64,000 bases of DNA from Ochrovirga pacifica (GTDB lineage: Bacteria; Bacteroidota; Bacteroidia; Flavobacteriales; Flavobacteriaceae), in contig NZ_AFPK01000063.1 in the NCBI RefSeq assembly GCF_000220525.1, positions 62,001 to 126,000 of the forward strand, written 5' to 3'. The notes under the pieces are model-generated. The model worked only from the letters and a program-made list of their open reading frames with translations. It was not told the origin of the DNA and did not search any database. Shown here in pieces: positions 8,344 through 43,249 of the stretch (its first letter is position 1; each line of letters starts with the position of its first letter). The position numbers were made by a program, and so were the translations under genes.

Positions 8344-8344
8344 G

Positions 8345-8909: not shown

Positions 8910-8932
8910 ATTATATTTTAATACTTTACAAA

Positions 8933-9952: not shown

Positions 9953-10002
9953 AATAAAATATTAATTTAATAAAATGTTTATCTTCTTTTAATTAACCGA
10001 AA

Positions 10003-10032
10003 CAAATATATAACAATTATTGAAACATCCAA
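10003..10032 (-). promoter_or_regulatory. Bacteroidota-type promoter of glnA
   Basis: On the minus strand a TTG (10032-10030) is followed after 19 bases by TATATTTG (10010-10003), matching the -33 TTG / -7 TAnnTTTG pattern. It is about 50 bases upstream of the glnA start, leaving a short AT-rich leader. Confidence 0.55.
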
Positions 10033-10199
10033 CGAGCAAACTACGTATTTTTACGTAGCAGAGACAATTTTATATTAAAGATGATTTAACACATTCTTAA
10101 AACTGTTTTTTATCATACAAATAGGTTGTTCAAAAAATATGTGGTCGCTAAAATTCAAATACCTAAATTTGCAATTCCATAAAAACACGAAATTATATT

Positions 10200-11387: not shown

Positions 11388-11414
11388 TTTATTGCTCTAT
11401 TAGGCAATTTATAC

Positions 11415-11450
11415 AAAACGCTCTTCTTTAAATTAAGAAGAGCGTTTTTG
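11415..11450 (+). terminator. Rho-independent terminator after purM
   Basis: A 14-bp perfect stem (AAAACGCTCTTCTT / AAGAAGAGCGTTTT) with a 6-base loop, continuing into a T-rich tail. Confidence 0.88.
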
Positions 11451-11527
11451 TTTGATTTCTTATCAAAAGAAATCTTTTTTTCTAGGTACAATTTCTTTAT
11501 TATTGTATTGTTAAGATAAAAAAGAGC

Positions 11528-12103: not shown

Positions 12104-12112
12104 AAAAAAGCT

Positions 12113-13438: not shown

Positions 13439-13439
13439 C

Positions 13440-14123: not shown

Positions 14124-14132
14124 CTGTTCTTA

Positions 14133-15293
14133 TTATCTGTTAATTATGTTGTTTAAACTCATTTCTGAAAAAGCTGGACTTCCTGTCATTCCTTTACCTC
14201 CAATTCCTGTTACTATGTGAATGTTTTTTTCTATTTGCTGCTCAAAAACATCCTGTTCTTTACATTGCGAATACATCCCTACCCATCTTTTATCTATCTG
14301 ATAATTAGGCAAATTCATTATTTTCTTTGATTCTTCTATCATAAAATGGTCTAAGTCTTCATTTCTATCAAACCCTATTAAGTCTGCCTTAACTGCATCT
14401 TGATATTCATGAGAGTCTCCCAAAATCACAGAACCATCATTTACTTGTTTAAACAAAATATGCACCCCATATTGATTGTGGTATGCTTCTTTATTTTCCT
14501 TATCTTTTATACTTTGAAAAGAAGGACATTCATAAAAAGATTCATACCTTCTTATAGTCCAACCAGTTAAAACAGAAGGTGCTAGTGTATAGTTTTTTTG
14601 AGGTTTGGTACGTAACATTTGTAATTTAGACACCACCAAATCACTTTGATTAAATAATTCTGGAAACAAAATTTTAAAATCACTTCCGTTACAAACAATT
14701 GCTTTTGATGCTATAAACTTCTGATTGTTAGCTGTTGTTGCAAGTACTTCATTTCCTTTGTCTTCCAAATCTTTTACTGTGTTGTTAGAAAAAAATTCTA
14801 ATTGATATTTTTCAATCAATAACTTGCGAACTCTATGAATCATTAAGCTAGGATCTACATTCATTTCTTGCGGAAAGAACAAAGCTCCTTTTGCGTATTC
14901 CTTCTTTAAACCAGCACAGCATGCTATACTCTGTGCCTGTGTTAACAAATGAGATTCGTAATTATTACTTTTGTTTATTTGTGAAAGTTCTTCTATTAAC
15001 TGTAGTTCCTCGGTATCAGAAGCTATATAAATACTACCAGACTGCCTAATGGTAATGTCTGTTAGCTGACTGATTTCTTGATAAATTTCTAAACTTTTTC
15101 TTCCAATATTTTGCCACTTTAAGTCCATTCCCGAGGGTACTATTTGTCCAAAGTTTCGAACAGTAGCCCCTTGCGGAACCGTATTCTTTTCTAGAAGTAC
15201 TACTTTTAATCCTTTTTTTAAAGCATGATACGCATGAAACGTTCCTAAAATCCCTCCTCCTACAATAATTAGGTCGTATTTTTTATGATTCAT
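14133..15293 (-). CDS. FAD-dependent oxidoreductase, phosphonate-associated (TIGR03364 / PbfC type)
   Basis: 386 residues of the DAO fold: FAD-binding YDLIIVGGGILGTFHAYH at the N-terminus and GIGGKGMTGSPAFSE at the C-terminus. This clade is repeatedly found with PhnX-like HAD proteins, and characterised relatives oxidise 2-aminoethylphosphonate and N-methylated forms to phosphonoacetaldehyde. Family assignment is from memory of these motifs and from context. Its start overlaps the MFS gene end by 11 bases, so the two are translationally coupled. Confidence 0.75.
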   Translation of the reverse strand: MNHKKYDLIIVGGGILGTFHAYHALKKGLKVVLLEKNTVPQGATVRNFGQIVPSGMDLKWQNIGRKSLEIYQEISQLTDITIRQSGSIYIASDTEELQLIEELSQINKSNNYESHLLTQAQSIACCAGLKKEYAKGALFFPQEMNVDPSLMIHRVRKLLIEKYQLEFFSNNTVKDLEDKGNEVLATTANNQKFIASKAIVCNGSDFKILFPELFNQSDLVVSKLQMLRTKPQKNYTLAPSVLTGWTIRRYESFYECPSFQSIKDKENKEAYHNQYGVHILFKQVNDGSVILGDSHEYQDAVKADLIGFDRNEDLDHFMIEESKKIMNLPNYQIDKRWVGMYSQCKEQDVFEQQIEKNIHIVTGIGGKGMTGSPAFSEMSLNNIINR

Positions 15294-16557
15294 AAATGAT
15301 GTGTTTTGATTGAGCTGTTATTTTTTGTTTGTTCTTAAAAAAGAAAAATGAGAGCATTGCTACTACAATGGCTAAAACTGAAACCATCAGAATTAGATAA
15401 GAAAAGAAGTGTATGTACGAGCTGTTTTTCTCTCCGAAATTTTTGTAAAGCAAAATGCAAACACTACCTAAATAACCAAAAGCATCGGAGATATAAATTA
15501 AAAAGCCTACATTTCCTTGAATTTTAAAGGTGGCAATCATTCTATCGTAAAACAATCCCTGAAATGGTATGTAGCAAGCATACATTCCAAAACCAGTACT
15601 CATCATCCACCATACAGCATTGATTGTATTTGTATAAAAAAGAAAAGTGGCTAAGGCAATTAAAACTCCTCCAAAAAACAATACCCAATGGTAAATAGCA
15701 AAAGCTTTTTTGTTCTTTTTAATAGAACCTATCACTATCATTAATAACAGAACAGAAATTGCAATAGGTATTTCCGAAAAAGAATAAACAGTAATACTAT
15801 CTACATAACCTAAAGAATCCCAAATTTCTCGTGCAAAATTGTCTCTAAAGTCTCTAACCCCAGTGACAAAAACATAAAAAATAATTATTAATGTTAATGG
15901 AATTGCAAATTCTCTATACAGCAAAAAACGTTCATGCTTGTTTAACGGAGCTCTTTTAGACCTTAACTGCTCATCTTCTAAAGAAGGTTTTGGCAACTGC
16001 TCTAACAAATAAGCAAAAATTAATAAAGGAAATACAAATAAAGCTCCCACTATAAAGGGCATCCAAAAAGCATTGAAACCCCAAGTATCCATTACAAATT
16101 TACCTACAGATTTTACTACTCCTGAAGACACAATAAAGCTAGAGCATAGAATAACCCCTAAGATTTCGGTTGTTTTTCTTCCTTCTAAATATGAGAATAC
16201 AATTCCCCAAATCATTCCCAATGGCAAACCGTTTAAAAATAAACATAGAATATTGTACGGTGCTGGTACCAAGGCAAAGCCTAATAAGGCAAATTCTGCA
16301 AAAGTTATAAAACTTATTAAGTACAGAAAGCGTTTAGAGTTGGGCATTTCGGCAATCCATTTAATTCCTAAAAACTTAGAAAGTGTATACCCTATTACTT
16401 GAGCAATAACCAATAGAATTTTATAGTCAATTCCCCAAAATTGTATATCGGAAAAGGTGGCTACTGTAAAAGGTTTTCGGAAAGCATACATACAGAAATA
16501 GGCACCAAAAGCTGCTATTGCTGCTTGTAATATAAATTTTAAACGATTTATTTTCAT
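15283..16557 (-). CDS. MFS transporter (DUF5690-like), possible organophosphate or phosphonate carrier
   Basis: 424 residues with about 12 hydrophobic membrane segments. The first one carries YFCMYAFRKPFTV, reminiscent of the YxxRK motif of the organophosphate:phosphate antiporter group (GlpT/UhpT), and a RDFRDNFAREIW motif sits mid-protein. It fits an inner-membrane importer for the product released by the periplasmic phosphatases upstream. Substrate is inferred from context; position between phosphatases and cytoplasmic C-P enzymes supports it. Confidence 0.65.
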   Translation of the reverse strand: MKINRLKFILQAAIAAFGAYFCMYAFRKPFTVATFSDIQFWGIDYKILLVIAQVIGYTLSKFLGIKWIAEMPNSKRFLYLISFITFAEFALLGFALVPAPYNILCLFLNGLPLGMIWGIVFSYLEGRKTTEILGVILCSSFIVSSGVVKSVGKFVMDTWGFNAFWMPFIVGALFVFPLLIFAYLLEQLPKPSLEDEQLRSKRAPLNKHERFLLYREFAIPLTLIIIFYVFVTGVRDFRDNFAREIWDSLGYVDSITVYSFSEIPIAISVLLLMIVIGSIKKNKKAFAIYHWVLFFGGVLIALATFLFYTNTINAVWWMMSTGFGMYACYIPFQGLFYDRMIATFKIQGNVGFLIYISDAFGYLGSVCILLYKNFGEKNSSYIHFFSYLILMVSVLAIVVAMLSFFFFKNKQKITAQSKHIIYES

Positions 16558-16647
16558 TATAAAAAAAGGAAATAAGTAGCAGCTTTCTAAACTACGAAAG
16601 CTGCTTTTCTACTAAAACAAACTCAAAATTCAAATAAATGAAACTTA

Positions 16648-18237
16648 TTATTTTGTGGTGATAAAAGAAGCTGTATCAGACCAGTCACTCCAGTTTAAAA
16701 ACTGATCTCTGTATCTAACTCTCCAGTAATAAGTAGTGTTTGGCTCTAATCTTTCAAAAGATTCATCGGTTAAATCATCAAACTTTTGACGGTTTTCGTC
16801 ATAATACCAATTTTCAAACTGTTTCCAACTATTACTTGCTTCTTTAAAGGTTTTGTCTTTAGATAGTTGCCAATGTGAAGCTGCATGAAAAGCTCCCATT
16901 CGTTCTCCTTTAAACAAACTTGCTTTTAAAGTGGTTCCTATATAATTTACCATCTTGTTTACAGGAGACAACACTTGGGGTTTTTCTGGTTTTTTAGTGT
17001 TTTTAAAGACTGTAATCTCATCAGAAACCTCGTTGTTTTTTACGCCATCTTCTACGTTTCCTCTACTTATTCTTTTTAATGTTAATTTAGGATCTTCTGG
17101 ATTAGGATCTACCGTAACCATTACAAAACCATAAGCATCTTGAGTAACCGTAAATTCGTTATAATCTCTTCCTTGGTACTCTCCCCAGTTATCAATAGCC
17201 CCACCTGCAGAAGCTACATTTACCCATAAATGTTTGTGATCTCTAGATTGCCCTCTAGAATATCCATGCGTATGCCCAAAGAAATGCAAACTTGGTTTTC
17301 CTGATGTTTCTGTAAATTCTTCTAACATTTTCACCACTTTTCCTGTAGAATCTTCTTCACCTGGGATCCATAATTCCGATTTGTGTGGATGGTGTAGTTG
17401 AGCAAACACAAAATCAATGTCCTTATTCTCTGCAGTTTCTTTAAGTACTGTTGCTAACCATTGGTATTGTTCTTTTAAATCTCTGTACCCATGATTGGAA
17501 TTCAACCCAATAATTCTAGTATTTCCATAATCTTTATACCACCAGTGTTCGTGATAAGCAGGAGTTCCATTTTCTGGCAAAGAAAAATATTTAAAATAAA
17601 AATTAGAATTGCGTTCATGATTTCCTGGCACTGGGTATACTGGAACCTGCGAAAATAAATCTGCAGCTGGAGAAAAAAAATGATCTTTCCATTGATGGTA
17701 TTTTGCTCCATTTTCTACCAAATCTCCAGGAACCATTACCAAAGCTAAATTTTCGGGCAAACTTCCGTTAAACTCTTTTTCTAAATAAGCAATTACTCCC
17801 TGATTTACAATTTCAGAAAATTTATCAGGTTGTCTGTAATCGTACTGCATATCACTCATAGCAACCAAATTAAAGGTAGTTGCTTCACTAGAAAAAGGAG
17901 GGGTTTTAAATTCATGAATATCAGAAGTCAATTCTCCTGTTTTTACACGGTAATAATACTTGGTAAACTTTTTTAATCCAGTTAATTTTACTTCGTGCAA
18001 TCTTGCTGCTCCATAAGTTACTTTAGAACTGCTACCTGTAGTTGCATGTTTTAGTTTTTTGCGTGTTCCCCACTCTACCACACTCTCTTCCCCATCCGTA
18101 GTTTCCCACATAATTTTTATAGAGGTAGGTTCTGCATCTTGCAAGTATGGTTTTACCAAAAAATCTATTTTTTTCTGTGCAAACATACATTCTACAATTC
18201 CGATAAGTAACAACCCTAAGATTCTATTATTTTTCAT
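16648..18237 (-). CDS. Secreted purple-acid-type metallophosphoesterase with flanking FN3 domains
   Basis: 529 residues from ATG at 18237; a start 78 bases upstream would overlap the preceding gene and bury the signal peptide (MKNNRILGLLLIG...FAQ), so I chose the shorter form. Domains: signal peptide, FN3-like N-domain (25-110), metallophosphatase core with MSDMQYD, PGDLVENG, PGNHERN, LHHPHKS and FGHTHGYSRG as metal ligands in order, and a C-terminal FN3-like domain ending WSDWSDTASF. Likely periplasmic or surface phosphomonoesterase or diesterase in the substrate-processing step. Confidence 0.82.
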   Translation of the reverse strand: MKNNRILGLLLIGIVECMFAQKKIDFLVKPYLQDAEPTSIKIMWETTDGEESVVEWGTRKKLKHATTGSSSKVTYGAARLHEVKLTGLKKFTKYYYRVKTGELTSDIHEFKTPPFSSEATTFNLVAMSDMQYDYRQPDKFSEIVNQGVIAYLEKEFNGSLPENLALVMVPGDLVENGAKYHQWKDHFFSPAADLFSQVPVYPVPGNHERNSNFYFKYFSLPENGTPAYHEHWWYKDYGNTRIIGLNSNHGYRDLKEQYQWLATVLKETAENKDIDFVFAQLHHPHKSELWIPGEEDSTGKVVKMLEEFTETSGKPSLHFFGHTHGYSRGQSRDHKHLWVNVASAGGAIDNWGEYQGRDYNEFTVTQDAYGFVMVTVDPNPEDPKLTLKRISRGNVEDGVKNNEVSDEITVFKNTKKPEKPQVLSPVNKMVNYIGTTLKASLFKGERMGAFHAASHWQLSKDKTFKEASNSWKQFENWYYDENRQKFDDLTDESFERLEPNTTYYWRVRYRDQFLNWSDWSDTASFITTK

Positions 18238-29884: not shown

Positions 29885-30928
29885 TTATTTCTTACTAAAT
29901 TTAAAAGTGGTTCCGTTATTCAATACCAATACGTACAACCCTTCAGATAAATTTCTTACATCTATTTTTTTTCCATCAGAAATATTCCCTTTCTTAATTT
30001 CAGATCCTAAAATATTATAAATTCTATACGATTCTTCAGTTTTTAAATTTAATAGCTGAATAAAATCACTGGTTGGGTTAGCAAACATCTTAATTTTTTG
30101 TGTTTTTACATTAGTTGTTGCCGATAGCGTAGCAAACGAAAATTTAGATATTCTATTCCCATAAGCTTCTGATATGTAAAGTTCATTTTCATTTAATATT
30201 AACCCAACAGGTCCATCAAGTTCAGTAATTATATCTGTAACTGTTGGGGTTGTTCCTGAAAAATCTATTTTAGATACTTTATTCTCTCCAAAACTTGTTA
30301 CATAAAGCTCCTGTCCTTTAAATACCATTGCAGAAACATTACTTACTCTATCTATAATCTCCGTAACTGTTGGTGTAGCTTCCAAAAGGTTTATTTTAGA
30401 AATTTTATCATTAGACATTTCACATACGTAAAGGTCATTGTCTTTTAAGACCAAATCAATAGGACTTTCTAAATCAGTTACAAAGTCTATAGCTGTTGGG
30501 GTGGTTGCAGAAAGGTCTATTTTAGAAATTTTATTAGTATCATATTCAATTACGTAAAGCATATTTTCTTTAACAACCATTTCTGTGGGGGTTCTTAATC
30601 CTGTAACAATATCGGTAAGTGTTGGACTGGTTGCAGAAAGATCTATTTTAGAAATTTTACCACCTCCGGCTTGACTTATATAGAGCTCATCACCATTTAA
30701 AGTTAAGCCCCAAGGGCCATCTAAGTCCGTTAAAAATTCGGTAGCTGTTGGGTTGCTTGCCGAAATATCAAGCTTAGATATCCTTGCACCATTCAATTCT
30801 GCTATATATAAGTTGTTTCCGTGTAGAGCTAATCCAACGGGGTTAGCGACTTCTGTTATAACTTCGGTTTGTGCGCTTGTATAGAAAAATGCAAATAATA
30901 ATACTGTTAAGAGGTAGATTTTTTTCAT
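29885..30928 (-). CDS. Secreted beta-propeller protein with type IX sorting tail
   Basis: 347 residues. Signal peptide ...FYTSAQ; six repeats of about 44 residues (pattern GxLYIxExxxxKISKIDLSATTPT) filling residues 25-265, like NHL/SMP-30 propellers; then a type A Por-secretion C-terminal domain from about 275 (MFANPTSDFIQL, YRIYNILGSEIKKG, LSEGLYVLVL). The tail directs export by the type IX system that PorX regulates. Function of the propeller is unknown. Confidence 0.85.
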   Translation of the reverse strand: MKKIYLLTVLLFAFFYTSAQTEVITEVANPVGLALHGNNLYIAELNGARISKLDISASNPTATEFLTDLDGPWGLTLNGDELYISQAGGGKISKIDLSATSPTLTDIVTGLRTPTEMVVKENMLYVIEYDTNKISKIDLSATTPTAIDFVTDLESPIDLVLKDNDLYVCEMSNDKISKINLLEATPTVTEIIDRVSNVSAMVFKGQELYVTSFGENKVSKIDFSGTTPTVTDIITELDGPVGLILNENELYISEAYGNRISKFSFATLSATTNVKTQKIKMFANPTSDFIQLLNLKTEESYRIYNILGSEIKKGNISDGKKIDVRNLSEGLYVLVLNNGTTFKFSKK

Positions 30929-33687: not shown

Positions 33688-33975
33688 TTATTCTTTAAAT
33701 AGTTCTGCAGGATTCATTTTAAATTGTAACATTTGAGCAGTTTTTCTACCTCCATCACCACCTTTTCTTTGCATTGTAATTCTACCTATTTTAAAATTCC
33801 CTCTATTAGTTATCTCTATTTCTCCATTACCAAAAAAGTTCAAACAATAGTTCATTGGTTTTAAAATCCACCTTGCAGAATTATCTACTTTTTGAGCAAC
33901 TAACATCCATTCAGCAGAAAACTTACCTCTTCCTTTTAAAATATCACTTACAATAAGTGATTTGTTGTTGGACAT
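33688..33975 (-). CDS. Hypothetical protein, 95 aa
   Basis: 95 residues, not recognised with confidence. Mixed alpha/beta with WMLVAQKVDNSARWILKPMN, FFGNGEIEITNRG and a basic ITMQRKGGDGGRKTA stretch; the last part feels like the C-terminus of some type II restriction endonucleases, which I cannot verify. It starts 11 bases after the lipoprotein gene and shares its cassette. It could be a small DNA-binding protein or a domain fragment. Confidence 0.5.
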   Translation of the reverse strand: MSNNKSLIVSDILKGRGKFSAEWMLVAQKVDNSARWILKPMNYCLNFFGNGEIEITNRGNFKIGRITMQRKGGDGGRKTAQMLQFKMNPAELFKE

Positions 33976-33986
33976 AGTTTTTATAA

Positions 33987-34436
33987 TTAATTATTCATTT
34001 CCAAGTTTGTTTCATTTATTTTCAATCTAGCTTTTCCTGTCATAAAAAGAGGGTATTCTAGCACAATATCTACTATGTTATTCTCAATATTAAATATATT
34101 TTCTGTTTTAAACCTATCCTTTCCAATGTAATTATAATATGTAACTAATTTATATTTTCCATTATCAAGTTGGATATTGTTTGTAGTAAACCACTTGTAT
34201 TCTTTTTTTTTAATTAGTTTATTTCTGACTAATTGGTTTTCGGAATGGTCATATATTTCAATAGTTGTTTTGTTACTGCCCAAAGCTCTAGGAGCTTCAT
34301 TTATAGTTATTTGTATTCCTTTGGAAATCCTAATATTTTTAGCATCAATTAATTGATTTTTTTTAGGCGAAATTACAATACAAGAATTGCAAAATACAAG
34401 AATTGATAGTAAAAATATTCTTTTCAAATTTTTCAT
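33987..34436 (-). CDS. Hypothetical lipoprotein, 149 aa
   Basis: 149 residues with a lipobox (LVFCNSC) and a beta-rich remainder (KGIQITINEAPRALGSNKTT). No family recognised. It begins just behind an attC-like junction (34446-34577), consistent with the first gene of a cassette that also contains the 95-aa gene. Confidence 0.55.
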   Translation of the reverse strand: MKNLKRIFLLSILVFCNSCIVISPKKNQLIDAKNIRISKGIQITINEAPRALGSNKTTIEIYDHSENQLVRNKLIKKKEYKWFTTNNIQLDNGKYKLVTYYNYIGKDRFKTENIFNIENNIVDIVLEYPLFMTGKARLKINETNLEMNN

Positions 34437-34445
34437 TTTAATTGC

Positions 34446-34577
34446 ATTCTACTTTTTTGCCTATAATTTTATTGCATGGTTTAGTACTTAACTTTGCAAG
34501 AACACACCCAACTGAAAATCTTCCCAAATTTTCAGAAGTAGGCAGGAACAAGCAATTACTTATAGCCATTGTAGTTT
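34446..34577 (-). repeat. attC-like junction, partly decayed (site 1)
   Basis: Imperfect palindrome between the lipoprotein and serine-hydrolase genes. Left arm CTACttttTTGCCTATAA and right arm TTATAGCCATTGTAG pair in part. It is clearly related to site 2 (35.69-35.81 kb): both share TTTTATTGC, CAGAAGTAGG and CAAGCAATTACTTATAG. The outer cores no longer match the AAC/GTT rule, so it is probably inactive. Confidence 0.55.
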
Positions 34578-34581
34578 GCCG

Positions 34582-35658
34582 TTATTTTATTCTTTTTATG
34601 ATGTTTAAAGCCAACTCTTCAAGTTTATCATCTATTCCTTTAGATAAAACTGTACCTTCAAAACTTGCGTTCGATAAAACAGCAATTCCGATGTTTGATT
34701 CTGGGAAAATCATAAACCAATTCTGCATTCCCCAAATTCCACCGTGATGTCTATAACATACTTCATTTTCTATTTCAACAATATTCCAATGATAACCAAT
34801 ATCAAAATCGTATTGAGTTTTGAAAAAGTTTTTGTGAGATTCTCGAACTTCTGGGATTGAATCGTTTAAATGATATTTAATGTACTTGATTAAATCTTTT
34901 GTGTTTGAGTGAATTCCAGAAATCCCACCCCAAAGATTATTTTGATAATGTGCTTGCGGTTCCTTCTCTCCATTGTAACCTTGTATCAACAAATTTTGGT
35001 CGTTTGTATTTAGAACAAACTTCGTATTTGTCATTTTGTTAGGTTCTAAAATATATTGGTGAATAAGCTTTTGGTACGGAACTCCATACGTTTTTTCAAG
35101 AATGTATGCAGTTATTTCAGGAGCGGTATTTGAATAATGGAATTCTGTTCCAGGTTTCGAACTAATTTCTACTTCATGCAACCCAGTCCAAAATGCTTTC
35201 TTGCTTTCATCGGTAGGTGGAAAGTTTGGAAAACCACCTGTATGAGTTAGTAAGTCTTTTATTGTAATTATTTCTCCATCGTACTCAAAATTGGGATATG
35301 CTTCTGGTAAATAAGTACGAATATCATCATCAAGCGATATTTTGCCATCAAGAACTGCTTTTGCTGCCATTGTACCAGTAAAGGTTTTAGTAACCGAAGC
35401 CAGTTCGTAAAGTGTAGTGTCGGTTGGTGGGTTTTTCTTGTTTGGATTTTGTTCTCCAAAATGATACGTAGCTTCTTTTCCCTTATTGTAGATTGCTATT
35501 GAAACGGAATGAATTCTGTCATCATCTAAAAAATCAGTAGCAAAATGCTCTACAATTTTCTCTGGGTTATTTTTCTTAAATGATTTATTTCCATTGCAAC
35601 TGATTATTAAAAAAGTTACAAATCCAAGAAGTATTGTTTTCTGAATGTTTCTTATCAA
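34582..35658 (-). CDS. Serine hydrolase, beta-lactamase class C / PBP4-like lipoprotein
   Basis: 358 residues. Lipobox FLIISC, then a serine beta-lactamase fold: ASVTKTF holds the SxxK nucleophile, YSNTAPEI the YxN motif and RHHGGIWG the third (HxG) motif. Families with this pattern include esterases, D-amino-peptidases and penicillin-binding proteins; resistance should not be assumed. It lies between two related attC-like junctions and so is probably cassette-borne. Confidence 0.85.
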   Translation of the reverse strand: MIRNIQKTILLGFVTFLIISCNGNKSFKKNNPEKIVEHFATDFLDDDRIHSVSIAIYNKGKEATYHFGEQNPNKKNPPTDTTLYELASVTKTFTGTMAAKAVLDGKISLDDDIRTYLPEAYPNFEYDGEIITIKDLLTHTGGFPNFPPTDESKKAFWTGLHEVEISSKPGTEFHYSNTAPEITAYILEKTYGVPYQKLIHQYILEPNKMTNTKFVLNTNDQNLLIQGYNGEKEPQAHYQNNLWGGISGIHSNTKDLIKYIKYHLNDSIPEVRESHKNFFKTQYDFDIGYHWNIVEIENEVCYRHHGGIWGMQNWFMIFPESNIGIAVLSNASFEGTVLSKGIDDKLEELALNIIKRIK

Positions 35659-35685
35659 TGTTTTTGGTTTTTAGCGATTGTACAT

Positions 35686-35813
35686 TAAGTTCTAGTGTAT
35701 GATTTTATTGCTGGTTTAAGTGATAAAGTTAGCAAATAAATTACTGATAAAAAGTCATTTAGGATTTTTAGAAGTAGGTAATAACAAGCAATTACTTATA
35801 GGCATTGTTGTGT
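35686..35813 (-). repeat. attC-like junction between serine hydrolase and TrkH (site 2)
   Basis: On the minus strand it begins with ACACAAC (35813-35807), which is the exact complement of GTTGTGT at the start of the TrkH cassette. The other end is decayed and homologous to site 1. The interior has paired arms (CAATGCCTATAAGTAATTGC against GCAATAAAATCATACAC). Confidence 0.7.
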
Positions 35814-35847
35814 GGCGTTTTTTCTATTTTTCTTATTTTTAATTTTT

Positions 35848-37200
35848 TCATACAGCCAAATCATCAGTTCTGATTTTTTTAGAATCGTTCTCTTTTTGTT
35901 TCAACAGAGCAAATCCAAAAGTTAGAACTCCAACACGTCCAATAAACATTAAAATAATTATCAATGTTTTCCCAATGTTAGATAAATCTCCAGTAATTCC
36001 TGTGCTTAATCCAACTGTTCCTAAAGCGGATGCTACTTCAAATAATATACTATCGAAAGAAAAGTTTTCAAAGTAAGAAAGTAAAAATGAAAACAAGAAA
36101 ATTAAACTCGTGTAAAGCATAAAAGTAGATGTCGCAACATATATTCTCTCAAACGGAATGAGTCGGTTTAAAAATGTGATTTTTTTCTGACCAAACAATC
36201 GGCTTTTCAATATTGATAGCATTGCCGTTAATGTCGTTATTTTCATTCCTCCTGCCGTTCCCGAAGGCGAAGCTCCTATATACATAAGAAAGGTTACAAG
36301 TAATAATATTGGTAAGGATAATTCACCCATAGGTATCGTGTTAAACCCAACTGTTGTCATAGCTGACATTGCTTGAAAAAAAGAGGTCATTAGTGAACTA
36401 TTTGAGCCCAGAATAGATGATGACTCTGTTATATAAATAAGAGAAGTACCTAAAAAAAGTAAAATCAAAAAACCATAAATAATAATTCTAGTTGTAAAGG
36501 AAATTTCTTTTGATTTACCCCTAATTCGATACCACAAATCTGTAATTACAATAAAACCCAAAGAACCAGAAATTGCTAATACAGAAATAATTGTATTTAT
36601 AAAAGTATTGTCTTGATAGCTTTCAAATCCATCATCAAACAATCCGAATCCAGCTGTACAAAACGATGAAACACTATGAAAAATTGAAAACCAAATTGCT
36701 TTTAAACTTCCCATTTTAGAATCGGTAAAGGCAAAGTAGAAAAGTATAGCTCCAATAGTTTCCATGATTAGGGTAAAAACAATAACGCTTTTGATGAAAT
36801 CTTTTATTTGAATTGTATTAGGTAAAGTAAATTCCACTCCTATTAATTTACTATGCCAATGGGTTATTTTTTTTGTGGTAAATATTAAATAGTATGTCGT
36901 TAGCGTCATATATCCAATTCCGCCAATTTGTATTAATGCCATAATAACAAACTGACCCAAAAAATTATAGGAATCGAAAACGCTTATAGTTACAAGTCCA
37001 GTAGTTGAAATAGCAGAAGTCGATATAAACAAATTATCTAAAAACGATATGTCGGTTTTGTGAAATAATGGGATGGATAGTAAGATGAATCCAATAAGTG
37101 TATACAAAAAGAATCCCCAAACTAAATTCATTTGTGGTGATTTACTAATTTGGAATTTTAGGTACCAATTAGATATTTTCTTGTATGTTTTATTTTCCAT
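35848..37200 (-). CDS. trkH: TrkH-family potassium uptake protein
   Basis: 450 residues with about 10-12 membrane helices and the four repeated pore loops of Trk/Ktr channels: STTGLVTISVF, SSFCTAGFGLFDDG, SAMTTVGFNTIPMG and SALGTVGLSTGITG each carry the selectivity-filter glycine. It carries K+ (or Na+) across the inner membrane. No TrkA regulatory partner is adjacent, which is unusual. The gene occupies a complete cassette whose end cores match (GTTGTGT / ACACAAC). Confidence 0.93.
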   Translation of the reverse strand: MENKTYKKISNWYLKFQISKSPQMNLVWGFFLYTLIGFILLSIPLFHKTDISFLDNLFISTSAISTTGLVTISVFDSYNFLGQFVIMALIQIGGIGYMTLTTYYLIFTTKKITHWHSKLIGVEFTLPNTIQIKDFIKSVIVFTLIMETIGAILFYFAFTDSKMGSLKAIWFSIFHSVSSFCTAGFGLFDDGFESYQDNTFINTIISVLAISGSLGFIVITDLWYRIRGKSKEISFTTRIIIYGFLILLFLGTSLIYITESSSILGSNSSLMTSFFQAMSAMTTVGFNTIPMGELSLPILLLVTFLMYIGASPSGTAGGMKITTLTAMLSILKSRLFGQKKITFLNRLIPFERIYVATSTFMLYTSLIFLFSFLLSYFENFSFDSILFEVASALGTVGLSTGITGDLSNIGKTLIIILMFIGRVGVLTFGFALLKQKENDSKKIRTDDLAV

Positions 37201-37232
37201 TCTTTGTATTCAGATTTTTGTTTATAAATGAC

Positions 37233-37365
37233 ACACAACAATCTCGTATAACCGTCAGTTACGGGATTAAAGTTAATGATTTTCGGTTAAGCACTGACGT
37301 TAGCAATTCCGAGTGGATTCGGACGTAGTTAAATCCGCAGTAATTGCGGTTATACATTGTTAGGC
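37233..37365 (-). repeat. attC-like site after the 37.4-kb gene (site 3)
   Basis: 133-bp imperfect palindrome. On the minus strand it runs from GCCTAAC (37365-37359) to GTTGTGT (37239-37233). Inner arms pair well: AACAATGTATAACCG with CGGTTATACgaGATTGTT. The left core complements the GTTAGGC that opens the same cassette at 37.87 kb. The right core opens the TrkH cassette. Confidence 0.8.
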
Positions 37366-37369
37366 AAAG

Positions 37370-37843
37370 TTATTTTTTAAATTTAATTTTATTGAGAATT
37401 TTTTCCATCCAAGAGTCAAACTGTCCAGAGTAATTATAGAGAACAAATTGAAAAGAATTCGTGTCACAAATTCTCATAAAATTATGGCTATACCAAAAAC
37501 CAGTATTTCCTTTTCCGTCCCAAAATTCGCCCTTCCTTAATGCATAATACCATTTTGTGCCATTAATGACTAATGTATCGGATTTAATAAATTTTGTTGT
37601 TTCTGAGTCATCCACAAATCCATTTTTATAGGTTTGGATAAAATTTTTACCACTGATATATTCAGTCAATCCTTGACCTTTTTCTCCGACTTTTTCATTT
37701 TTTTCATTATGAATTAAACTGTATTCGTATTTCCAGTTTTCAGGCAGGATTAATGAAATTTTTCCATTCTCAAGAGAATAATTGTTTTGAGAATGAATTT
37801 TAATAATTGAGAATAATATAAGTATGTGTATAAAGATTTTCAA
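37370..37843 (-). CDS. Hypothetical exported protein, 157 aa
   Basis: 157 residues with a signal peptide (...IIKIHSQ) and a beta-rich, tryptophan-containing body (ILPENWKYEYSLIHN, YALRKGEFWDGKG). Not recognised; possibly periplasmic. It is the only gene of a cassette bounded by GTTAGGC and GCCTAAC, and its ATG lies about 25 bases inside the cassette, as is usual for integron cargo. Confidence 0.6.
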   Translation of the reverse strand: MKIFIHILILFSIIKIHSQNNYSLENGKISLILPENWKYEYSLIHNEKNEKVGEKGQGLTEYISGKNFIQTYKNGFVDDSETTKFIKSDTLVINGTKWYYALRKGEFWDGKGNTGFWYSHNFMRICDTNSFQFVLYNYSGQFDSWMEKILNKIKFKK

Positions 37844-37868
37844 ATGCGTGTTGTTTTATGTTAATTTT

Positions 37869-38068
37869 GCCTAACGGTTTTGACTAGCTTTTGTGCCGGA
37901 AGAAAATCGACAAGATTTTCAAACACGCAACTAAGCCGAAGCTTTTTGTTTGGATTTGTATCTTTTGGTTAAACTAAGCCAAATCAACAAGATTTGGCGA
38001 CTTAGTAAATATAGACAAAACTTTGGAAAAGAACCTAAGCCCACATTAACTATGAGCAGGTGTTGTAG
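37869..38068 (-). repeat. attC-like site, long form (site 4)
   Basis: 200 bp. On the minus strand it runs from CTACAAC (38068-38062) to GTTAGGC (37875-37869). The two outer cores do not pair with each other, but each pairs with the far end of its own cassette. Internal stems include CAAATCAACAAGATTTG. Confidence 0.78.
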
Positions 38069-38090
38069 TAAGTTTATTAAGTTCTACAGT

Positions 38091-38510
38091 TTATTGATTT
38101 TTCAATCTTTTCTTTATTCTTTTTTTATAATTACCTAATTCAATTTTCGTTAGCACATGTATAGGATCTTTTTTAGACATTAATTTTAATTCATCTTCAG
38201 AAAAACCTATTATTATTTTACGAGCTATAGATTCATAACCTTTCGGTTTTGTAACAATTTTCCCAATATTAACATTGTTATTATTATCTATTCTAAAAAA
38301 AGAAACTATCCTAATAACCGCTCTGTTTTCTATATTTAATTTTTGAGATAATTGGTCAACTTTTAGATTTAACTCAGTGTTATTTATTATTCTCTCAAAA
38401 TCCACTTTTTTATTAAGTTCAGAAAAAGGTTTTATGATTTTAGGTACAATTTTTTGAGAAAAGGATTCATTTCCAATTATAATTAAGAATATCAGTATTA
38501 CTTTTTTCAT
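38091..38510 (-). CDS. Hypothetical exported protein, 139 aa
   Basis: 139 residues, signal peptide (...GNESFSQ), then a helical, lysine-rich domain ending in NYKKRIKKRLKNQ. Not recognised. Its ATG starts 6 bases behind GTTGTAG, the cassette's left core, leaving almost no leader, so expression must come from upstream transcription or an embedded promoter. Bounded by GTTGTAG and CTACAAC. Confidence 0.6.
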   Translation of the reverse strand: MKKVILIFLIIIGNESFSQKIVPKIIKPFSELNKKVDFERIINNTELNLKVDQLSQKLNIENRAVIRIVSFFRIDNNNNVNIGKIVTKPKGYESIARKIIIGFSEDELKLMSKKDPIHVLTKIELGNYKKRIKKRLKNQ

Positions 38511-38516
38511 AATTTA

Positions 38517-38647
38517 CTACAACGGTCTTGTATATGAAAAGTAGCGGGTTTTACACGCTAACTTTTCGGATTATAACAGACCTTTAATTTATTCATTTTC
38601 TTTTAATTAAGCGATTAAGCCGCTATTTTTTATATACGTTGTTGTGC
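38517..38647 (-). repeat. attC-like site after HerA gene (site 5)
   Basis: 131 bp. On the minus strand it runs from GCACAAC (38647-38641) to GTTGTAG (38523-38517). Arms pair as CGTATATAAAAAATAGCGG with CCGCTACTTTTCATATACaAG. The left core complements the GTTGTGC found at 40734-40728, 2.1 kb away, at the other end of the HerA cassette. Confidence 0.8.
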
Positions 38648-38659
38648 TTTCGTGCATTT

Positions 38660-40645
38660 TTATTCAACCTGTCTTTCTAGATTTACAATCATCGGTAAAT
38701 TCGAACGAATTGCTTTACCTGTTACAATTGCATGATATCGTTTTAAATTTGGCAAAGCTTGAACTAAATCCCTTCCAATATAGTTTCCTAAAAAGTTAAA
38801 ACTAGTATCATCAAAAGCTTGGTAACATACGATGGTATTGCATTGTGTAAGAACTGTTTTTGATACATTCGCGGTTCTTTGAGCGATAACCAATAAACCA
38901 ACACCATATTTACGCCCTTGCAATGCTACCTGTCCCATTTTGTTTACCACTGCCTTGCTATCCCAATCATTAACACCCATAAAATTGCCTTCTGGAACTA
39001 TTGTGTGAGCTTCTTCAAGCACGAGACAAATTCTCATAGGAGTATTTGCTTCATAGGCTTCTTTTGCTTTAGAGAATATTAAACTGATAAAGTTTTCAGT
39101 AGATTGAATAACACCAACTGTATTACTAACAGTTGGGAGTTCAACTAGTCCGATAGAATCATCTTGAGCTGCTAGAAAAGCATCTAAATTACCACTGTTG
39201 AGTGAAGTTAATTGTAGTTTCTTTTTCCATTCTCCTGTGAAGTCAATGCAAATGACTTTAGTATCTGTTTTAAGCTGGTCAATTATTTCTCTCGCAAGGA
39301 ATGATTTTCCTGACCCTGTTACTCCAATTAATGCTGTGTGATGACTTATAGCTTCATGTAAGTTAATTACTGAAGGAAGAGTTGTGCTTGGAATTGTACC
39401 CAATTCAAAGTCAGGATATTGATACTGGTCAACTTCGATATCACTAGTGTCTGCTTTGAAAATAGGTGTGTTTATTGATGGAACCCACCCAAATTTTTGA
39501 AAGGAAAGAACATCATTTTGCCATTCTCCTAGCTGAATCGCTTCTCCTTCAATAAAACCTGATTCATTTTTACTTTCCAACTTTTCTAGTTCTGTAGAGC
39601 CACTTACTACCTGATAAAATAATCTACGACTACCTACTTTTAACTCCAATAAATCTCCTTCTTGAATATCGTCAGTTTGCTTTGAGTATTCGAATTTTAT
39701 AGTTCCAATAGATGATTTTTCAATTACAACACCAACAAAATCTGAAATTTTTAAAGAATCCGCCAAATTACGAATCTCATCAGGTTCTATGGTTTTATAA
39801 ACTACATTGCGTTTTAAGTTTGATAAATCATTTTGTGTTGTACCTAGTTGAAGAATTTTTATCCACTTCTCTTGATTTAACAAATATGTGTCGAATACTA
39901 TGCCTGCAATTGCATATGAATCGGAGTCTTGCATTGAATACTTGAAGGTTACAATGTCAAACCGTTTAATACTTTTACTTCTATCCTCAAAAAGCTTGGT
40001 AAGAAATATTTTCTTCGATTGAACCCCAAATATTTCCCCGATTGCATTTGATTGAAGAGTTGTTGTTTCTCTAATGAACGTATTATGAAGTGATTTTGGG
40101 TCGATAATTAATATTAATCCCCAAAGAATAATCATTGTAAAAAGATAGCTATCACTAACTTCTGCTATTATGTCGGATTTGTATAGAATAAGTATGGAGA
40201 TGAAAACAAAAGAGTAGATAACTTTTCCCCGACCGAAAAACACTGCTATATTCTTAATTTTATTTGATAGCTTATTTTTAAAAGAATCTGGGCTTTCATT
40301 TTCAGAAGCAAGGGCAATTGCAACAATTGAAAGGACAATAAGAATGCCTATCAAAGCAATTGTTACATACCAAATAGTGTCATTTTTAAATGATGATTGA
40401 ATTGACAAATAAACCAGAAGTAGTGGTATTGAATTAGTAATTATGTTTTTTGGTGATGAGTAATACGGTTCAATAAAAAGGGTTGAGAAGAACAACATAA
40501 AAAGTCCTGAATAGAACCAAACATTTTTTGTTGAAGTATCGGGTAGTATTGAATCTGTAAGTAAATAATGCAATCCACAGAACAATACTATGGTAACTAA
40601 TAATAGAATGAATCTATTTGTCAAAAAGAATTTTATCTTGTTCAT
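38660..40645 (-). CDS. Membrane-anchored HerA/FtsK-like ATPase (DUF87)
   Basis: 661 residues. About six hydrophobic segments in residues 1-190, a beta-barrel-like middle (190-430), then a HerA-type ATPase: GVTGSGKSFLA (Walker A, about 455), CLVLEEAH (Walker B), GVGLLVIAQRTANV (sensor/arginine region). HerA-like hexamers translocate DNA and appear in repair, conjugation and several phage-defence systems; here there is no NurA, Sir2 or nuclease neighbour. The N-terminal membrane anchor is distinctive. It is cargo of a complete cassette and has a leader of about 80 bases. Confidence 0.85.
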   Translation of the reverse strand: MNKIKFFLTNRFILLLVTIVLFCGLHYLLTDSILPDTSTKNVWFYSGLFMLFFSTLFIEPYYSSPKNIITNSIPLLLVYLSIQSSFKNDTIWYVTIALIGILIVLSIVAIALASENESPDSFKNKLSNKIKNIAVFFGRGKVIYSFVFISILILYKSDIIAEVSDSYLFTMIILWGLILIIDPKSLHNTFIRETTTLQSNAIGEIFGVQSKKIFLTKLFEDRSKSIKRFDIVTFKYSMQDSDSYAIAGIVFDTYLLNQEKWIKILQLGTTQNDLSNLKRNVVYKTIEPDEIRNLADSLKISDFVGVVIEKSSIGTIKFEYSKQTDDIQEGDLLELKVGSRRLFYQVVSGSTELEKLESKNESGFIEGEAIQLGEWQNDVLSFQKFGWVPSINTPIFKADTSDIEVDQYQYPDFELGTIPSTTLPSVINLHEAISHHTALIGVTGSGKSFLAREIIDQLKTDTKVICIDFTGEWKKKLQLTSLNSGNLDAFLAAQDDSIGLVELPTVSNTVGVIQSTENFISLIFSKAKEAYEANTPMRICLVLEEAHTIVPEGNFMGVNDWDSKAVVNKMGQVALQGRKYGVGLLVIAQRTANVSKTVLTQCNTIVCYQAFDDTSFNFLGNYIGRDLVQALPNLKRYHAIVTGKAIRSNLPMIVNLERQVE

Positions 40646-40727
40646 AGCTTTATTGTCTTTCTGTTCAAGGGTGAATTGTTCTTTTTAAGTTTATCATTAG
40701 TAGTCTCGTTGGTTTTTTCAGCATGAA

Positions 40728-40734
40728 GCACAAC
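40728..40734 (-). other. Left core of the HerA cassette
   Basis: GTTGTGC on the minus strand, the exact complement of GCACAAC at 38647-38641. It marks the last recognisable boundary of the array; no integrase gene or obvious attI follows within the next kilobase. Confidence 0.65.
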
Positions 40735-40983
40735 GTCTAATAACAACGTAATTTATTATACCATTCCAAATATAACAGAATTCCATGTAAAAGCACCTAA
40801 AACAAACAACAAATGTTAAAATAACACAGAATTGTCCCCTAATCTATATTCTTTTTTCTGTTTGTAGTGCTTGTTAGCCTTCTGCCTAAAAAACATTGTG
40901 TTTTTAGGGTATTCTAACACCTGTAGGGACCACAGGTTCAAGCAGCTGCAAGCTAAGCAATTCCTAGCAAACTACCTAAAAGC

Positions 40984-41123
40984 TGACACACAGTGACACA
41001 CCCTGACACACGTTGGCACAACATGAACTTTTTTGACACAGCGTGACACATCCTGACACACAGTGACACACGATGACACATCGTGACACGCTCTGAAACA
41101 ACCTGACCGAGATTGACACAAAA
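40984..41123. repeat. Tandem 10-nt repeat, 14 units, consensus TGACACAnnn
   Basis: Fourteen consecutive 10-base units start with TGA at exact 10-base intervals from 40984; nine keep TGACACA intact, the others differ at a few positions (one is TGAACTTTTT). The last three bases vary. There is no coding frame that explains it, and the period is close to one turn of the DNA helix. Confidence 0.85.
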
Positions 41124-41424
41124 ATTCGATTTTTTAGGGGTTTTGTTCGAGTCTCCTTCGGGTTTTCTTCGGGAATCACTCTGGGTTATTTTTTAAAAAT
41201 GGACATTTCAGGGAACAATCCCGAACAAAACTCAAACCAAACCCATGGCATGCCCCCAAAACAAACGCGCAAACCGCAATTGTTTTAAAAAAATAAGTTC
41301 ATTGCTAGCTGTTTACCCAAAAAAGCAACTCTTTTGCATAAAACAACAGCCTTTGGTCTTAAATTAAAAGATTATTGTTCTATGCCTAAAATCCCATTTC
41401 GGATGTAGATCTTATAAAAAACAA

Positions 41425-41456: not shown

Positions 41457-41459
41457 GTT

Positions 41460-41482
41460 GCAGTGAGAGTGGGATTCGAACC
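41460..41482 (-). other. Truncated tRNA 3' end (putative attachment-site scar)
   Basis: On the minus strand GGTTCGAATCCCACTCTCACTGC reads as the T-loop, distal T-stem and acceptor strand of a tRNA. The upstream bases (GATAA) cannot complete the T-stem, so this is not a working tRNA. Such 22-23-nt fragments arise when an element integrates in a tRNA gene. Orientation implies the element lies at higher coordinates. Confidence 0.5.
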
Positions 41483-41648
41483 TTATCACTAACCCTGCTG
41501 TAAATCAATAGTTTGTTAGCTTTCAATAAAATGTGTTGACCGAATTGTGAACCTAAAAAATAATTCTTTTTAGTAGATTTTGACTATCATCGAACTATAC
41601 AAATTTACGAATTAACAACCTATAAATCAACACAAAACACAACAAATT

Positions 41649-41852
41649 CTATGATACTTGTTTCAAATAATCCTTGATAATTTCTATGTCTATACCTGTG
41701 TATTCGGAGAACTCTTGATGGGTGATAAATTGATAAGGCTGCTTGTCAAAATGGGCTCTTATTTCGTTTAAAAGCCTCCTACTGTAACGTTCACTTCTTC
41801 CAGTAATGCACTGAATGTCTTTTGGATAGATACATGCTCTTATAATTTTCAT
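41649..41852 (-). CDS. Small HTH-like protein, 67 aa
   Basis: 67 residues; DIQCITGRSERYSRRLLNEI looks like a helix-turn-helix, followed by FITHQEFSEYTGID. This resembles a small, widespread flavobacterial family of unknown function; recognised by pattern only. It faces the 42.0-kb gene across 150 bases, so it could regulate that cluster. Confidence 0.55.
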   Translation of the reverse strand: MKIIRACIYPKDIQCITGRSERYSRRLLNEIRAHFDKQPYQFITHQEFSEYTGIDIEIIKDYLKQVS

Positions 41853-42000
41853 TTTTTTAATACTTTAACTATGCTTTATCTATAGGGTTAATATCCTCCT
41901 TTTCGGAAAGAAAGGCTTTTAACGGTCTGTATAACCATCTATTTTTGAATTCTATATAAGATACTCATTCTTTTGTTATAAATCTTAAAATCATAGAATT

Positions 42001-42756
42001 ATGGCAAAACAAACTGGAATTATTAAACTGAAAGGAACTATTGGAGATATTTCTTTTTACAAAACAACCGATGGGCATTTGGCTCGTGAAAAAGGTGGTG
42101 TGGATGCACAACGTATCAAAACAGATCCTGCTTTTCAAAGAACGCGTGAAAACGGTTCTGAGTTTGGAACCGCTGGTAAAGGTGGAAAACTTTTACGTAA
42201 CTCTATCCGAATTCTTTTACAGAATGCAAAAGACAAACGTGTATCAAGTAGATTGACTGCTGCTGTTTTAAAGGTAGTAAAAACAGATACGACACATGCT
42301 CGTGGAGAAAGAACCATCCAAGATGGAACATTTGGATTGCTAAGCAATTTTGAGTTTAACATCAATGGGAAATTAGGGGCTACATTGTTTGCTACACATA
42401 CCCATGCTTTTGACCGCGTGACTGGAGAGGGAACGATTGACATTCCTGCATTTAAACCAACGACTCATATTGCAGCTCCTTCTGGAACCACTCATTTTAA
42501 AATTGTGACTGGTGTTGCGGAATTGGATTTTGTGAACGAAACTTTTGTGTTTGACAATGATGAAACTGCTATTTTACCTTATGATAGCAACGATACTGCT
42601 GTGATTGATTTATCAGCAACTATCACAGCCAATTCAACCTTACCCGTTGTACAGGTGTTAGGTGTTGAATTCTATCAAGAAGTGAATGGTGAAATGTATT
42701 CATTAAAAAATGGTTCTTACAACGCTTTAGCGGTGAAACTAGCGGACAAAGTGTAA
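42001..42756 (+). CDS. Conserved hypothetical protein of DUF5675 cluster, 251 aa
   Basis: 251 residues. The N-terminus (MAKQTGIIKLKGTIGDISFY) and HLAREKGGVDAQRI recall a family I have seen across flavobacterial genomes without assigned function; the C-terminal half is beta-rich and could be a structural or coat-like domain. No signal peptide. It is 4 bases before the DUF5675 gene and clearly in the same operon. Confidence 0.65.
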   Translation: MAKQTGIIKLKGTIGDISFYKTTDGHLAREKGGVDAQRIKTDPAFQRTRENGSEFGTAGKGGKLLRNSIRILLQNAKDKRVSSRLTAAVLKVVKTDTTHARGERTIQDGTFGLLSNFEFNINGKLGATLFATHTHAFDRVTGEGTIDIPAFKPTTHIAAPSGTTHFKIVTGVAELDFVNETFVFDNDETAILPYDSNDTAVIDLSATITANSTLPVVQVLGVEFYQEVNGEMYSLKNGSYNALAVKLADKV

Positions 42757-42760
42757 TCTT

Positions 42761-43156
42761 ATGGAGATCAATTTACATAGGACCTATTACAAAGAGGGCA
42801 CCAATGGTGCTCTCTTTATCAAAGAACAGTTTTTTGGATTCTGTATCGAGTTGCCCTGGTTGGATAATCGTAGAAATGTTTCTTGTGTTCCAGAAGGAGT
42901 CTATGTATTAAAAGCTAGGTATTCACAAAAGTTTGGTCATCATTTGATTTTGGAAAACGTTCAAAATAGGACACTTATTTTGATTCATCCTGCGAATGAT
43001 GCTTTGCAAGAATTAAGGGGTTGTATCGCTCCTGTAACTGGTTTATCAGGCATAGGAAAAGGTACTTCTTCCAGATTATTGTTCCACAAATTGGTTTCTA
43101 AATGTTATCAAGCTTTTGATAGGAAAGAAACGGTTTTATTAATTATTAAATCATAA
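42761..43156 (+). CDS. DUF5675-family protein
   Basis: 131 residues. The family core is visible: FCIELPWLDNRRNVSCVPEGVY, then LILIHPANDALQELRGCIAP, where His, Asn and the GCI cysteine are arranged as in L,D-transpeptidase-like active sites. DUF5675 proteins occur in phages and Bacteroidota islands, and the layout suggests a cell-wall or lysis-related role; this is inference. Two membrane peptides follow. Confidence 0.75.
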   Translation: MEINLHRTYYKEGTNGALFIKEQFFGFCIELPWLDNRRNVSCVPEGVYVLKARYSQKFGHHLILENVQNRTLILIHPANDALQELRGCIAPVTGLSGIGKGTSSRLLFHKLVSKCYQAFDRKETVLLIIKS

Positions 43157-43249
43157 AAAGTAAAAAATAAGAGTCTCTACACATTAGAGTTTCTATTCAT
43201 TTTTTTCTTGATACTTCGACAAGCTCAGCACAGGTGCAAAATGAACCAA

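What the first reader, a model, noticed from the sequence alone, without database searches (positions are those of the whole stretch)
33987..40734. Integron-like cassette array with self-matching cassette cores and no integrase
On the minus strand four consecutive cassettes have end cores that are exact reverse complements: TrkH (GTTGTGT 37239 / ACACAAC 35813), 37.4-kb gene (GTTAGGC 37875 / GCCTAAC 37365), 38.1-kb gene (GTTGTAG 38523 / CTACAAC 38068) and HerA (GTTGTGC 40734 / GCACAAC 38647). The two cores within a single junction do not match (for example GCCTAAC with GTTGTGT). That is precisely what site-specific excision and insertion at attC sites leaves behind, since each cassette brings its own core. 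The AAC/GTT triplets are intact in all. No integron integrase is visible, so it would be a CALIN-type cluster. I saw this directly; family name is inference.
Basis: partly seen in the sequence, partly recalled or inferred. Interest (0 to 1): 0.85.

Follow-up and report, generated by a model that had tools for sequence, protein, structure and literature searches.

The report
Integron-like gene arrays without integron integrase
The window holds part of a mobile gene-cassette array built like a bacterial integron, but the enzyme that sits beside such arrays in this family of marine bacteria lacks the domain thought essential in every known integron enzyme, so these bacteria seem to run a parallel gene-capturing machine that has largely gone unnoticed.

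Summary
Four minus-strand cassettes in the window (HerA, two small genes, TrkH) begin and end with complementary cores (8-9 of 9 nt), while cores within one junction do not match. A fifth cassette is decayed. The junctions belong to a family of ~145-215 nt hairpin sites with strong covariation. They space cassettes across Flavobacteriaceae and beyond: two chromosomes carry about 85-110 in one orientation.

In 238 cassettes, positions 4-7 of start and end agree in 207, against 13 within junctions and 11.7 by shuffling. Complementarity runs ~14 nt, twice the classical 7-nt integron core, with a fixed G.T wobble on the better-folding bottom strand.

The recombinase is absent from the window but present in the genome at a contig edge (C44), where the contig stops inside its attI-like site. 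In 16 genome loci, plus 80 named loci (252 of 253 sites), sites lie 3' of this gene and codirectional with it.

The enzyme is a tyrosine recombinase related to IntI. It lacks the IntI-specific insertion (89-90 versus 131 residues) and has an extra N-terminal domain.

So it works like an integron but fails the defining IntI test. I found no description of it in the library searched. Recombination itself is untested.

The parts
38524..40734 (-). Cassette 1: HerA-type ATPase gene (661 aa, DUF87); starts GTTGTGCTTCATGC, ends ...GCACAAC
   Evidence: Sequence; Pfam DUF87; core match 9/9 read from the strings printed. First cassette of this cluster; rare gene, one 36% relative in 397 family genomes
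38510..38654 (-). Recombination site S1 (attC-like), closing cassette 1
   Evidence: Covariance model R1, 105.9 bits, E 9.5e-20 (C15:100510-100654)
37876..38523 (-). Cassette 2: 139-aa ORF of unknown function
   Evidence: Cores GTTGTAG / CTACAAC; no Pfam match
37862..38078 (-). Recombination site S2, long variant (~215 nt), closing cassette 2
   Evidence: 82-87% identical to sites in C21, C27 and C68 of the same genome
37240..37875 (-). Cassette 3: 157-aa ORF of unknown function
   Evidence: Cores GTTAGGC / GCCTAAC, 9/9
37226..37372 (-). Recombination site S3, closing cassette 3; the query that found the family-wide repeat
   Evidence: DNA match in 94 of 149 family genomes, up to 95-96% identity over 120-140 nt; R1 91.1 bits
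35689..37239 (-). Cassette 4: TrkH potassium transporter (450 aa)
   Evidence: Pfam TrkH E 1.5e-49; cores 8/9
35675..35820 (-). Recombination site S4, closing cassette 4; right core decayed (no GTT)
   Evidence: R1 43.5 bits
34453..35688 (-). Cassette 5, decayed: serine beta-lactamase-family protein (358 aa)
   Evidence: Pfam Beta-lactamase E 5.7e-53; cores only 5/9
34439..34584 (-). Recombination site S5, decayed; last recognisable site of the cluster
   Evidence: R1 56.6 bits
40735..40826 (-). 5' boundary element before cassette 1 (...ACGTTGTTATTAGAC|GTTGTGC); not the usual attI-like site
   Evidence: 73% identical over 92 nt to the sequence before the only cassette at C43:108991-109076 of the same genome

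Best explanation
The stretch is an integrase-less outpost of an integron-like cassette system. Each cassette is one gene plus a ~145-215 nt site. Shown: the two ends of a cassette are complementary over ~14 nt, as expected if they were joined in a circle and opened at the GTT core. The sites form a conserved hairpin whose bottom strand folds better, because fixed positions are G.T wobbles there and A.C mismatches on top. Arrays lie in one orientation 3' of a dedicated tyrosine recombinase and its conserved attI-like site (TATAAC..|GTT). Inferred: the recombinase excises cassettes as circles at the folded bottom strand of the sites and inserts them at its attI-like site. The window cluster, four live cassettes and one decayed, was placed away from the platform by off-target insertion or by rearrangement of a larger array, and is served in trans by the recombinase on contig C44. 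The recombinase is a relative of IntI that lacks the IntI-specific domain, so hairpin recognition must be done differently.
For: Self-matching ends: 207/238 against 13 within junctions and 11.7 shuffled; 18/18 in the own genome. Structure: 97.6% of cells paired, 113 double-changed cells, covariation 0.447 against 0.115 +/- 0.013 shuffled, none of 500 as high; bottom strand more stable in 210/215 circle-form sites, no bias in random segments. Platform: all sites 3' of and codirectional with the recombinase in 16 genome loci; in 80 named loci 252 of 253 sites lie downstream and 253 of 253 are codirectional. attI-like motif right after the gene in 64 of 73 loci; in most of 16 platforms the first cassette's own core sits at that site. 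Own genome: C44 ends ...GATATAACCC directly after the recombinase gene. Mobility: 16 families of near-identical cassettes at different array positions; neighbours of the copies differ in 565 of 629 comparisons; sites also on plasmids and a phage. Enzyme: catalytic R, K, H, R, H, Y conserved; ArgI-His spacing 89-90 against 131 in IntI; fold close to VchIntIA, Z 19.5. Outside support: one attC from Polaribacter phage P12002L recombined with attI1 under IntI1, bottom strand only (PMC9892861); that phage carries an array of sites of this family.
Against: No recombination has been shown for this recombinase. No second genome of the genus was held, so cassette gain or loss at this very locus was not seen. 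The link from C44 to the array contigs rests on a contig edge, and the full array size in this genome is unknown. The 5' boundary of the window cluster is not the usual attI-like site. Some non-flavobacterial genomes with such sites also carry a true IntI, so in them either enzyme could act. The tested phage site is not proven to be one of my hits (its sequence is in a supplement I could not read).
Confidence: 0.86

Rival explanations
1. A classical integron-derived CALIN: cassettes moved by an ordinary IntI integrase elsewhere, with attC sites that are merely divergent.
For: Same logic of cassette ends, GTT core and hairpin. Canonical IntI is common in the wider GTDB phylum (105 of 395 genomes), and some of those genomes carry R1-type sites. 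One attC of a Polaribacter phage array worked with IntI1 (PMC9892861).
Against: No IntI over the cut-off in this genome or in the genomes of its family in that sample. In the family every platform examined has the other recombinase exactly where IntI would be, with its own conserved attI-like site. The core is ~14 nt instead of 7.
Confidence: 0.07
2. The sites are structured RNA elements or terminators at gene ends, spread by homologous recombination; the complementary ends have a transcript-level role.
For: Sites lie 3' of genes and fold well.
Against: The complementarity links the start of a cassette with its end across the gene, not the two cores that lie next to each other in one junction. 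The better-folding strand is the bottom strand, opposite to the cassette transcript. The tie to a recombinase and its attI-like site is almost absolute.
Confidence: 0.02
3. Host XerC/XerD act on the sites, and the adjacent recombinase is incidental.
For: XerC/XerD-like genes are present (contigs C51, C60), and Xer-related proteins serve several mobile elements (PMC8138268).
Against: The platform recombinase forms a group with IntI that is separate from flavobacterial Xer (100/99), and its gene is at the array head wherever tested.
Confidence: 0.03

Closest known systems
Chromosomal integron / superintegron (IntI + attI + attC cassette array)
   Same: Single-gene cassettes in one orientation, imperfect palindromic sites, core with GTT, cassette-end complementarity, bottom-strand bias, an attI-like site beside a tyrosine recombinase, large arrays of ~100 cassettes, dispersed integrase-less clusters
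   Different: Recombinase lacks the IntI-specific domain and has an extra N-terminal domain; core ~14 nt with a fixed G.T wobble; the gene is codirectional with the array and lies 5' of it; attI-like motif TATAAC..|GTT
CALIN (cluster of attC sites lacking an integrase)
   Same: Two or more cassette sites with no recombinase next to them, as in this window
   Different: Standard attC models were not available here; the recombinase of the genome is not IntI
Xer recombinases (XerA, XerC/D) and dif
   Same: Same catalytic fold and motifs; NCBIfam NF040815 'recomb_XerA_Arch' is the best-scoring model, at its cut-off
   Different: Tied to cassette arrays and a hairpin site family; extra N-terminal domain; groups with IntI rather than flavobacterial XerC/D
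Phage attC clusters, Polaribacter phage P12002L (PMC9892861)
   Same: Published CALIN; R1 finds at least nine sites of this family there, all on one strand; one published site recombined with attI1
   Different: Described as a standard integron CALIN; no link made to a dedicated flavobacterial recombinase in the passages read

Membership tests
Integron (strict) | Tyrosine recombinase with the IntI-specific additional domain around patch III (criterion stated in PMC9668308) | tested here: not met
   TIGR02249 match covers profile 7-181 and 238-313 only, 210.6 bits below the cut-off 265; ArgI-to-His spacing 89-90 in 53 family members, 131 in all 20 IntI
Integron (strict) | Cassette sites with conserved secondary structure and an AAC...GTT core | tested here: met
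   Covariation 0.447 against 0.115 shuffled; AAC and GTT in 257 and 255 of 257 sites
Integron (strict) | Cassette end complementary to the same cassette's start, not to its neighbour | tested here: met
   207/238 against 13/238
Integron (strict) | attI site beside the integrase gene, receiving the first cassette | tested here: met
   Motif in 64 of 73 loci; first cassette's own core found there in most of 16 platforms; own contig C44 ends inside it. Function not tested
Integron (strict) | Recombinase excises and integrates cassettes | not testable with these tools
   Needs an experiment; only static evidence
CALIN | Two or more attC sites by the standard covariance model, no intI nearby | tested here: inconclusive
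   Four sites with my own model plus one by DNA similarity, and no recombinase on C15; the IntegronFinder model was not available
Xer/dif system | XerC/XerD orthologue acting at a chromosomal dif site | tested here: not met
   Scores 172-175 bits against XerC/XerD cut-offs of 335/330; separate XerC/XerD-like genes exist in the genome; tree split 100/99

The most novel reading that the evidence does not exclude
Bacteroidota run a second cassette-capture system, parallel to integrons. Its recombinase lacks the domain held to be essential for integron recombination, and it distinguishes the strands of a folded site by wobble/mismatch pairs and a 14-nt core. IntI may even have arisen from within this recombinase family; in the tree IntI branches inside it, but with weak support (80/82).
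Probability: 0.7. Interest if true: 0.92.

Novelty: new variant of a known kind. Interest (0 to 1): 0.82.

Why it matters
Integrons are the textbook gene-capture platform, and their enzyme is recognised by one extra domain. Surveys that require that domain report almost no integrons in Bacteroidetes: the IntegronFinder 2.0 paper names one complete integron, in Salinibacter ruber (PMC9024848), and a Tenacibaculum genome was reported integron-free (PMC10013915), although two other Tenacibaculum genomes show such platforms here. If these arrays are mobilised by the recombinase described, a large pool of cassette genes in marine bacteria has gone uncounted, the role of the IntI-specific domain becomes directly testable, and the origin of integrons can be studied. 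The system also occurs on plasmids, one of which carries erm(F).

Tried and rejected
Rfam at gathering thresholds gave no match in the window. Single-site DNA searches of plasmids with S3 and of phages with one site found nothing; a second site type did find plasmids, and the covariance model found the phage array.

Folding the in-array junctions one by one gave only moderate z-scores, because half of the R box belongs to the next cassette. Joining each site to its own cassette start made the structure clear.

A search for shared cassettes between the fetched genomes found none at 70% or more over 75% of length, so mobility rests on within-genome copies. The genus search returned only the window's own genome, so same-locus comparison was impossible. 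The HerA gene is too rare to trace.

A first profile missed the long variant at 37862-38078; it was recovered by DNA similarity. A PDB comparison covered only residues 80-343 of the recombinase model, so the N-terminal domain was not identified. Literature: ten searches, none described this system; preprints and most subscription papers are not held.
Full report
**Observation.** Over nine positions, HerA and both small cassettes match 9/9 and TrkH 8/9 (for the 37.4-kb gene and TrkH; the other two read from the sequence and the strings). The two cores within one junction do not match. Two further junctions downstream (34439-34584, 35675-35820) are decayed members of the same kind, so the cluster is five cassettes with the last one dead.

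**A site family.** Junction 37225-37385 used as DNA query matched 94 of 149 genomes of the same family, one per genus, with up to 95-96% identity over 120-140 nt and several same-strand copies within tens of kilobases. Iterated profile searching of 20 fetched stretches plus the window gave 268 sites. Two complete chromosomes, G068 (about 533-611 kb) and G113 (about 164-241 kb), hold roughly 85-110 sites each, all in one orientation; the median cassette length over all arrays is 618 nt.

**Cassette-end test.** In 238 cassettes, positions 4-7 of the start and of the reverse-complemented own end are all identical in 207. The same test within a junction gives 13, and shuffling gives 11.7. Agreement is 0.89-0.95 at each of positions 4-9, falls at 10, is 0.18 at position 11 (0.09 in unique cassettes), and returns to 0.67-0.73 at 12-14 (0.74-0.82 in unique cassettes). 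The start has A at position 11 where the end calls for G: an A.C mismatch on the top strand and a G.T wobble on the bottom strand. The classical integron core is 7 nt (general knowledge), so this core is about twice as long. In the window's own genome, 18 of 18 complete cassettes on contigs C21, C27, C28, C68 and C72 match 8-9 of 9.

**Structure.** On 39 diverse sites, a 19-pair stem has 97.6% of cells paired, 113 double-changed cells and a covariation score of 0.447, against 0.115 +/- 0.013 in shuffles; sliding the partner destroys it. Two positions are almost always G.U (38/39 and 30/39). With each site joined to its own cassette start, the bottom strand folds better in 210 of 215 (mean -29.3 against -25.0 kcal/mol); random segments show no bias. 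Caveat: the structure was drawn by hand from this alignment, so pairing percentages lean towards it; the shuffle and slide controls are the guard.

**The recombinase.** No match to TIGR02249 or to the platform recombinase lies on C15, the window's contig. The genome's best IntI-like protein is on C44 (386 aa). In G068 and G113 its relatives sit at the head of the large array. In 16 genome loci every detected site lies 3' of the gene and in its direction (with coordinates). An independent set of 80 named loci gave 253 sites: all codirectional and 252 downstream; the exception is L320:5269-5414. The set includes Polaribacter, Lutibacter, Winogradskyella, Tenacibaculum, Leeuwenhoekiella blandensis and Formosa. 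Right after the stop codon a motif TATAAC..|GTT occurs in 64 of 73 loci, and in most of the 16 platforms the first cassette's own core is found at that place. Contig C44 of the window's genome ends in ...AAAGATATAACCC, within this motif, so its array is presumably on the small contigs that begin or end inside sites.

**What the enzyme is.** All six catalytic positions are conserved. The distance from the first catalytic Arg to the His is 89-90 residues in 53 family members, 131 in 20 IntI and 92-96 in Xer. The missing stretch is the IntI-specific domain that the archaeal integron paper calls a defining characteristic (PMC9668308). NCBIfam puts the proteins at the cut-off of NF040815 and well below that of TIGR02249. 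The predicted model aligns with VchIntIA over 254 residues at 3.3 A, Z 19.5, and with archaeal Xer at Z 22. An N-terminal domain of about 60 residues (strands and two helices) is not covered by these matches. In a tree, IntI is one clade (100/100) and IntI plus the new family are separated from flavobacterial Xer (100/99). IntI falls inside the new family only with weak support (80/82), and the Xer outgroup is narrow and long-branched, so descent is open. PMC8138268 notes that the insertion is not fully conserved in its 'integron-like' subgroup, so some of these proteins may already sit there unrecognised.

**Distribution.** In a sample of 395 GTDB Bacteroidota genomes, 105 have IntI over the cut-off, none of them in the window's family; 102 match the site model and 113 the recombinase query. 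In one other family (f24) short recombinases without the N-terminal domain lie beside arrays but appear divergent from them, and true IntI genes occur in some of the same genomes. Which enzyme acts there is open. Plasmids carry the system: Chryseobacterium (recombinase and three sites), Persicobacter pPP2 (28 sites in 23.5 kb) and Flagellimonas (a dihydrofolate reductase-family cassette between two sites, beside a recombinase and erm(F)).

**Mobility evidence.** 177 of 183 cassettes with an ORF of 60 aa or more have it in array direction. Sixteen families of near-identical cassettes occur at different positions; neighbours of the copies differ in 565 of 629 comparisons. These are static traces, not observed events. 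One family of 24 copies dominates the comparison count.

**Outside evidence.** PMC9892861 cloned two attC sites of Polaribacter phage P12002L; one recombined with attI1 under IntI1, bottom strand only. My model finds at least nine sites in that region, all on one strand, at E below 1e-5. I could not confirm from coordinates that the tested site is one of them.

**The window cluster.** Its first cassette is preceded not by the usual attI-like site but by a 92-nt element that also precedes the single cassette on C43 (73% identity). I read these as secondary insertion places; this is inference.

**Verdict.** It works like an integron (strong). It is not a member of the integron family as now defined, because the recombinase fails the IntI test. 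I found no prior description in the library, which holds no preprints, so novelty is provisional.

Noticed in passing
L354 (NZ_CP092416.1, Flagellimonas marinaquae plasmid), 3220-6140: A mobilizable plasmid carries the recombinase, erm(F) and a dihydrofolate reductase-family gene lying between two sites of this family.
   Followed up: partly
L271 (NZ_CP041688.1, Chryseobacterium plasmid), 7974-16680: A plasmid-borne recombinase of this family followed by cassettes and three codirectional sites.
   Followed up: partly
L353 (Persicobacter psychrovividus plasmid pPP2): 28 sites in 23.5 kb, all in one orientation, outside the flavobacteria.
   Followed up: partly
L352 (Polaribacter phage P12002L), 29998-39720: An array of at least nine sites on one strand, several with short hairpins (67-79 nt); the annotated methyltransferase genes there lie on the other strand, opposite to the usual cassette direction.
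   Followed up: partly
window 40735-40826: The element before the first cassette recurs before the only cassette on C43 (108991-109076); its nature (secondary insertion site or another kind of attI) is unexplained.
   Followed up: partly
window 40983-41130: Degenerate decamer repeats around TGACACA; the surrounding ~200 nt recur at C35:36172-36381 (86%) and C46:3947-4137 (79%) of the same genome.
   Followed up: no
window 41458-41482: 25 nt identical to C12:18019-18043; the text (GAGTGGGATTCGAACC) looks like a tRNA 3' end, perhaps a remnant of an attachment site.
   Followed up: no
window 41599-43159: Related copies of a ~1.5-kb unit with a DUF5675 gene at C34 (83%), C9 (82%) and C10 (70%).
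   Followed up: no
window 33688-33975: Only the last 92 positions of the R.HinP1I restriction endonuclease family (profile 117-208): a truncated gene.
   Followed up: no
window 30143-30787: Five 126-nt tandem repeats inside a secreted NHL-repeat protein gene with a Por secretion tail.
   Followed up: no
G439:C44, G431:C33, G446:C4, G561:C17: Family f24: short recombinases (~280 aa, no N-terminal domain) beside arrays of such sites, apparently divergent from them; some of these genomes also have a true IntI.
   Followed up: partly
L210 and L338 (G118, Christiangramia sabulilitoris): Platforms whose sites score low with the model and have higher G+C, suggesting site types specific to a lineage.
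   Followed up: no
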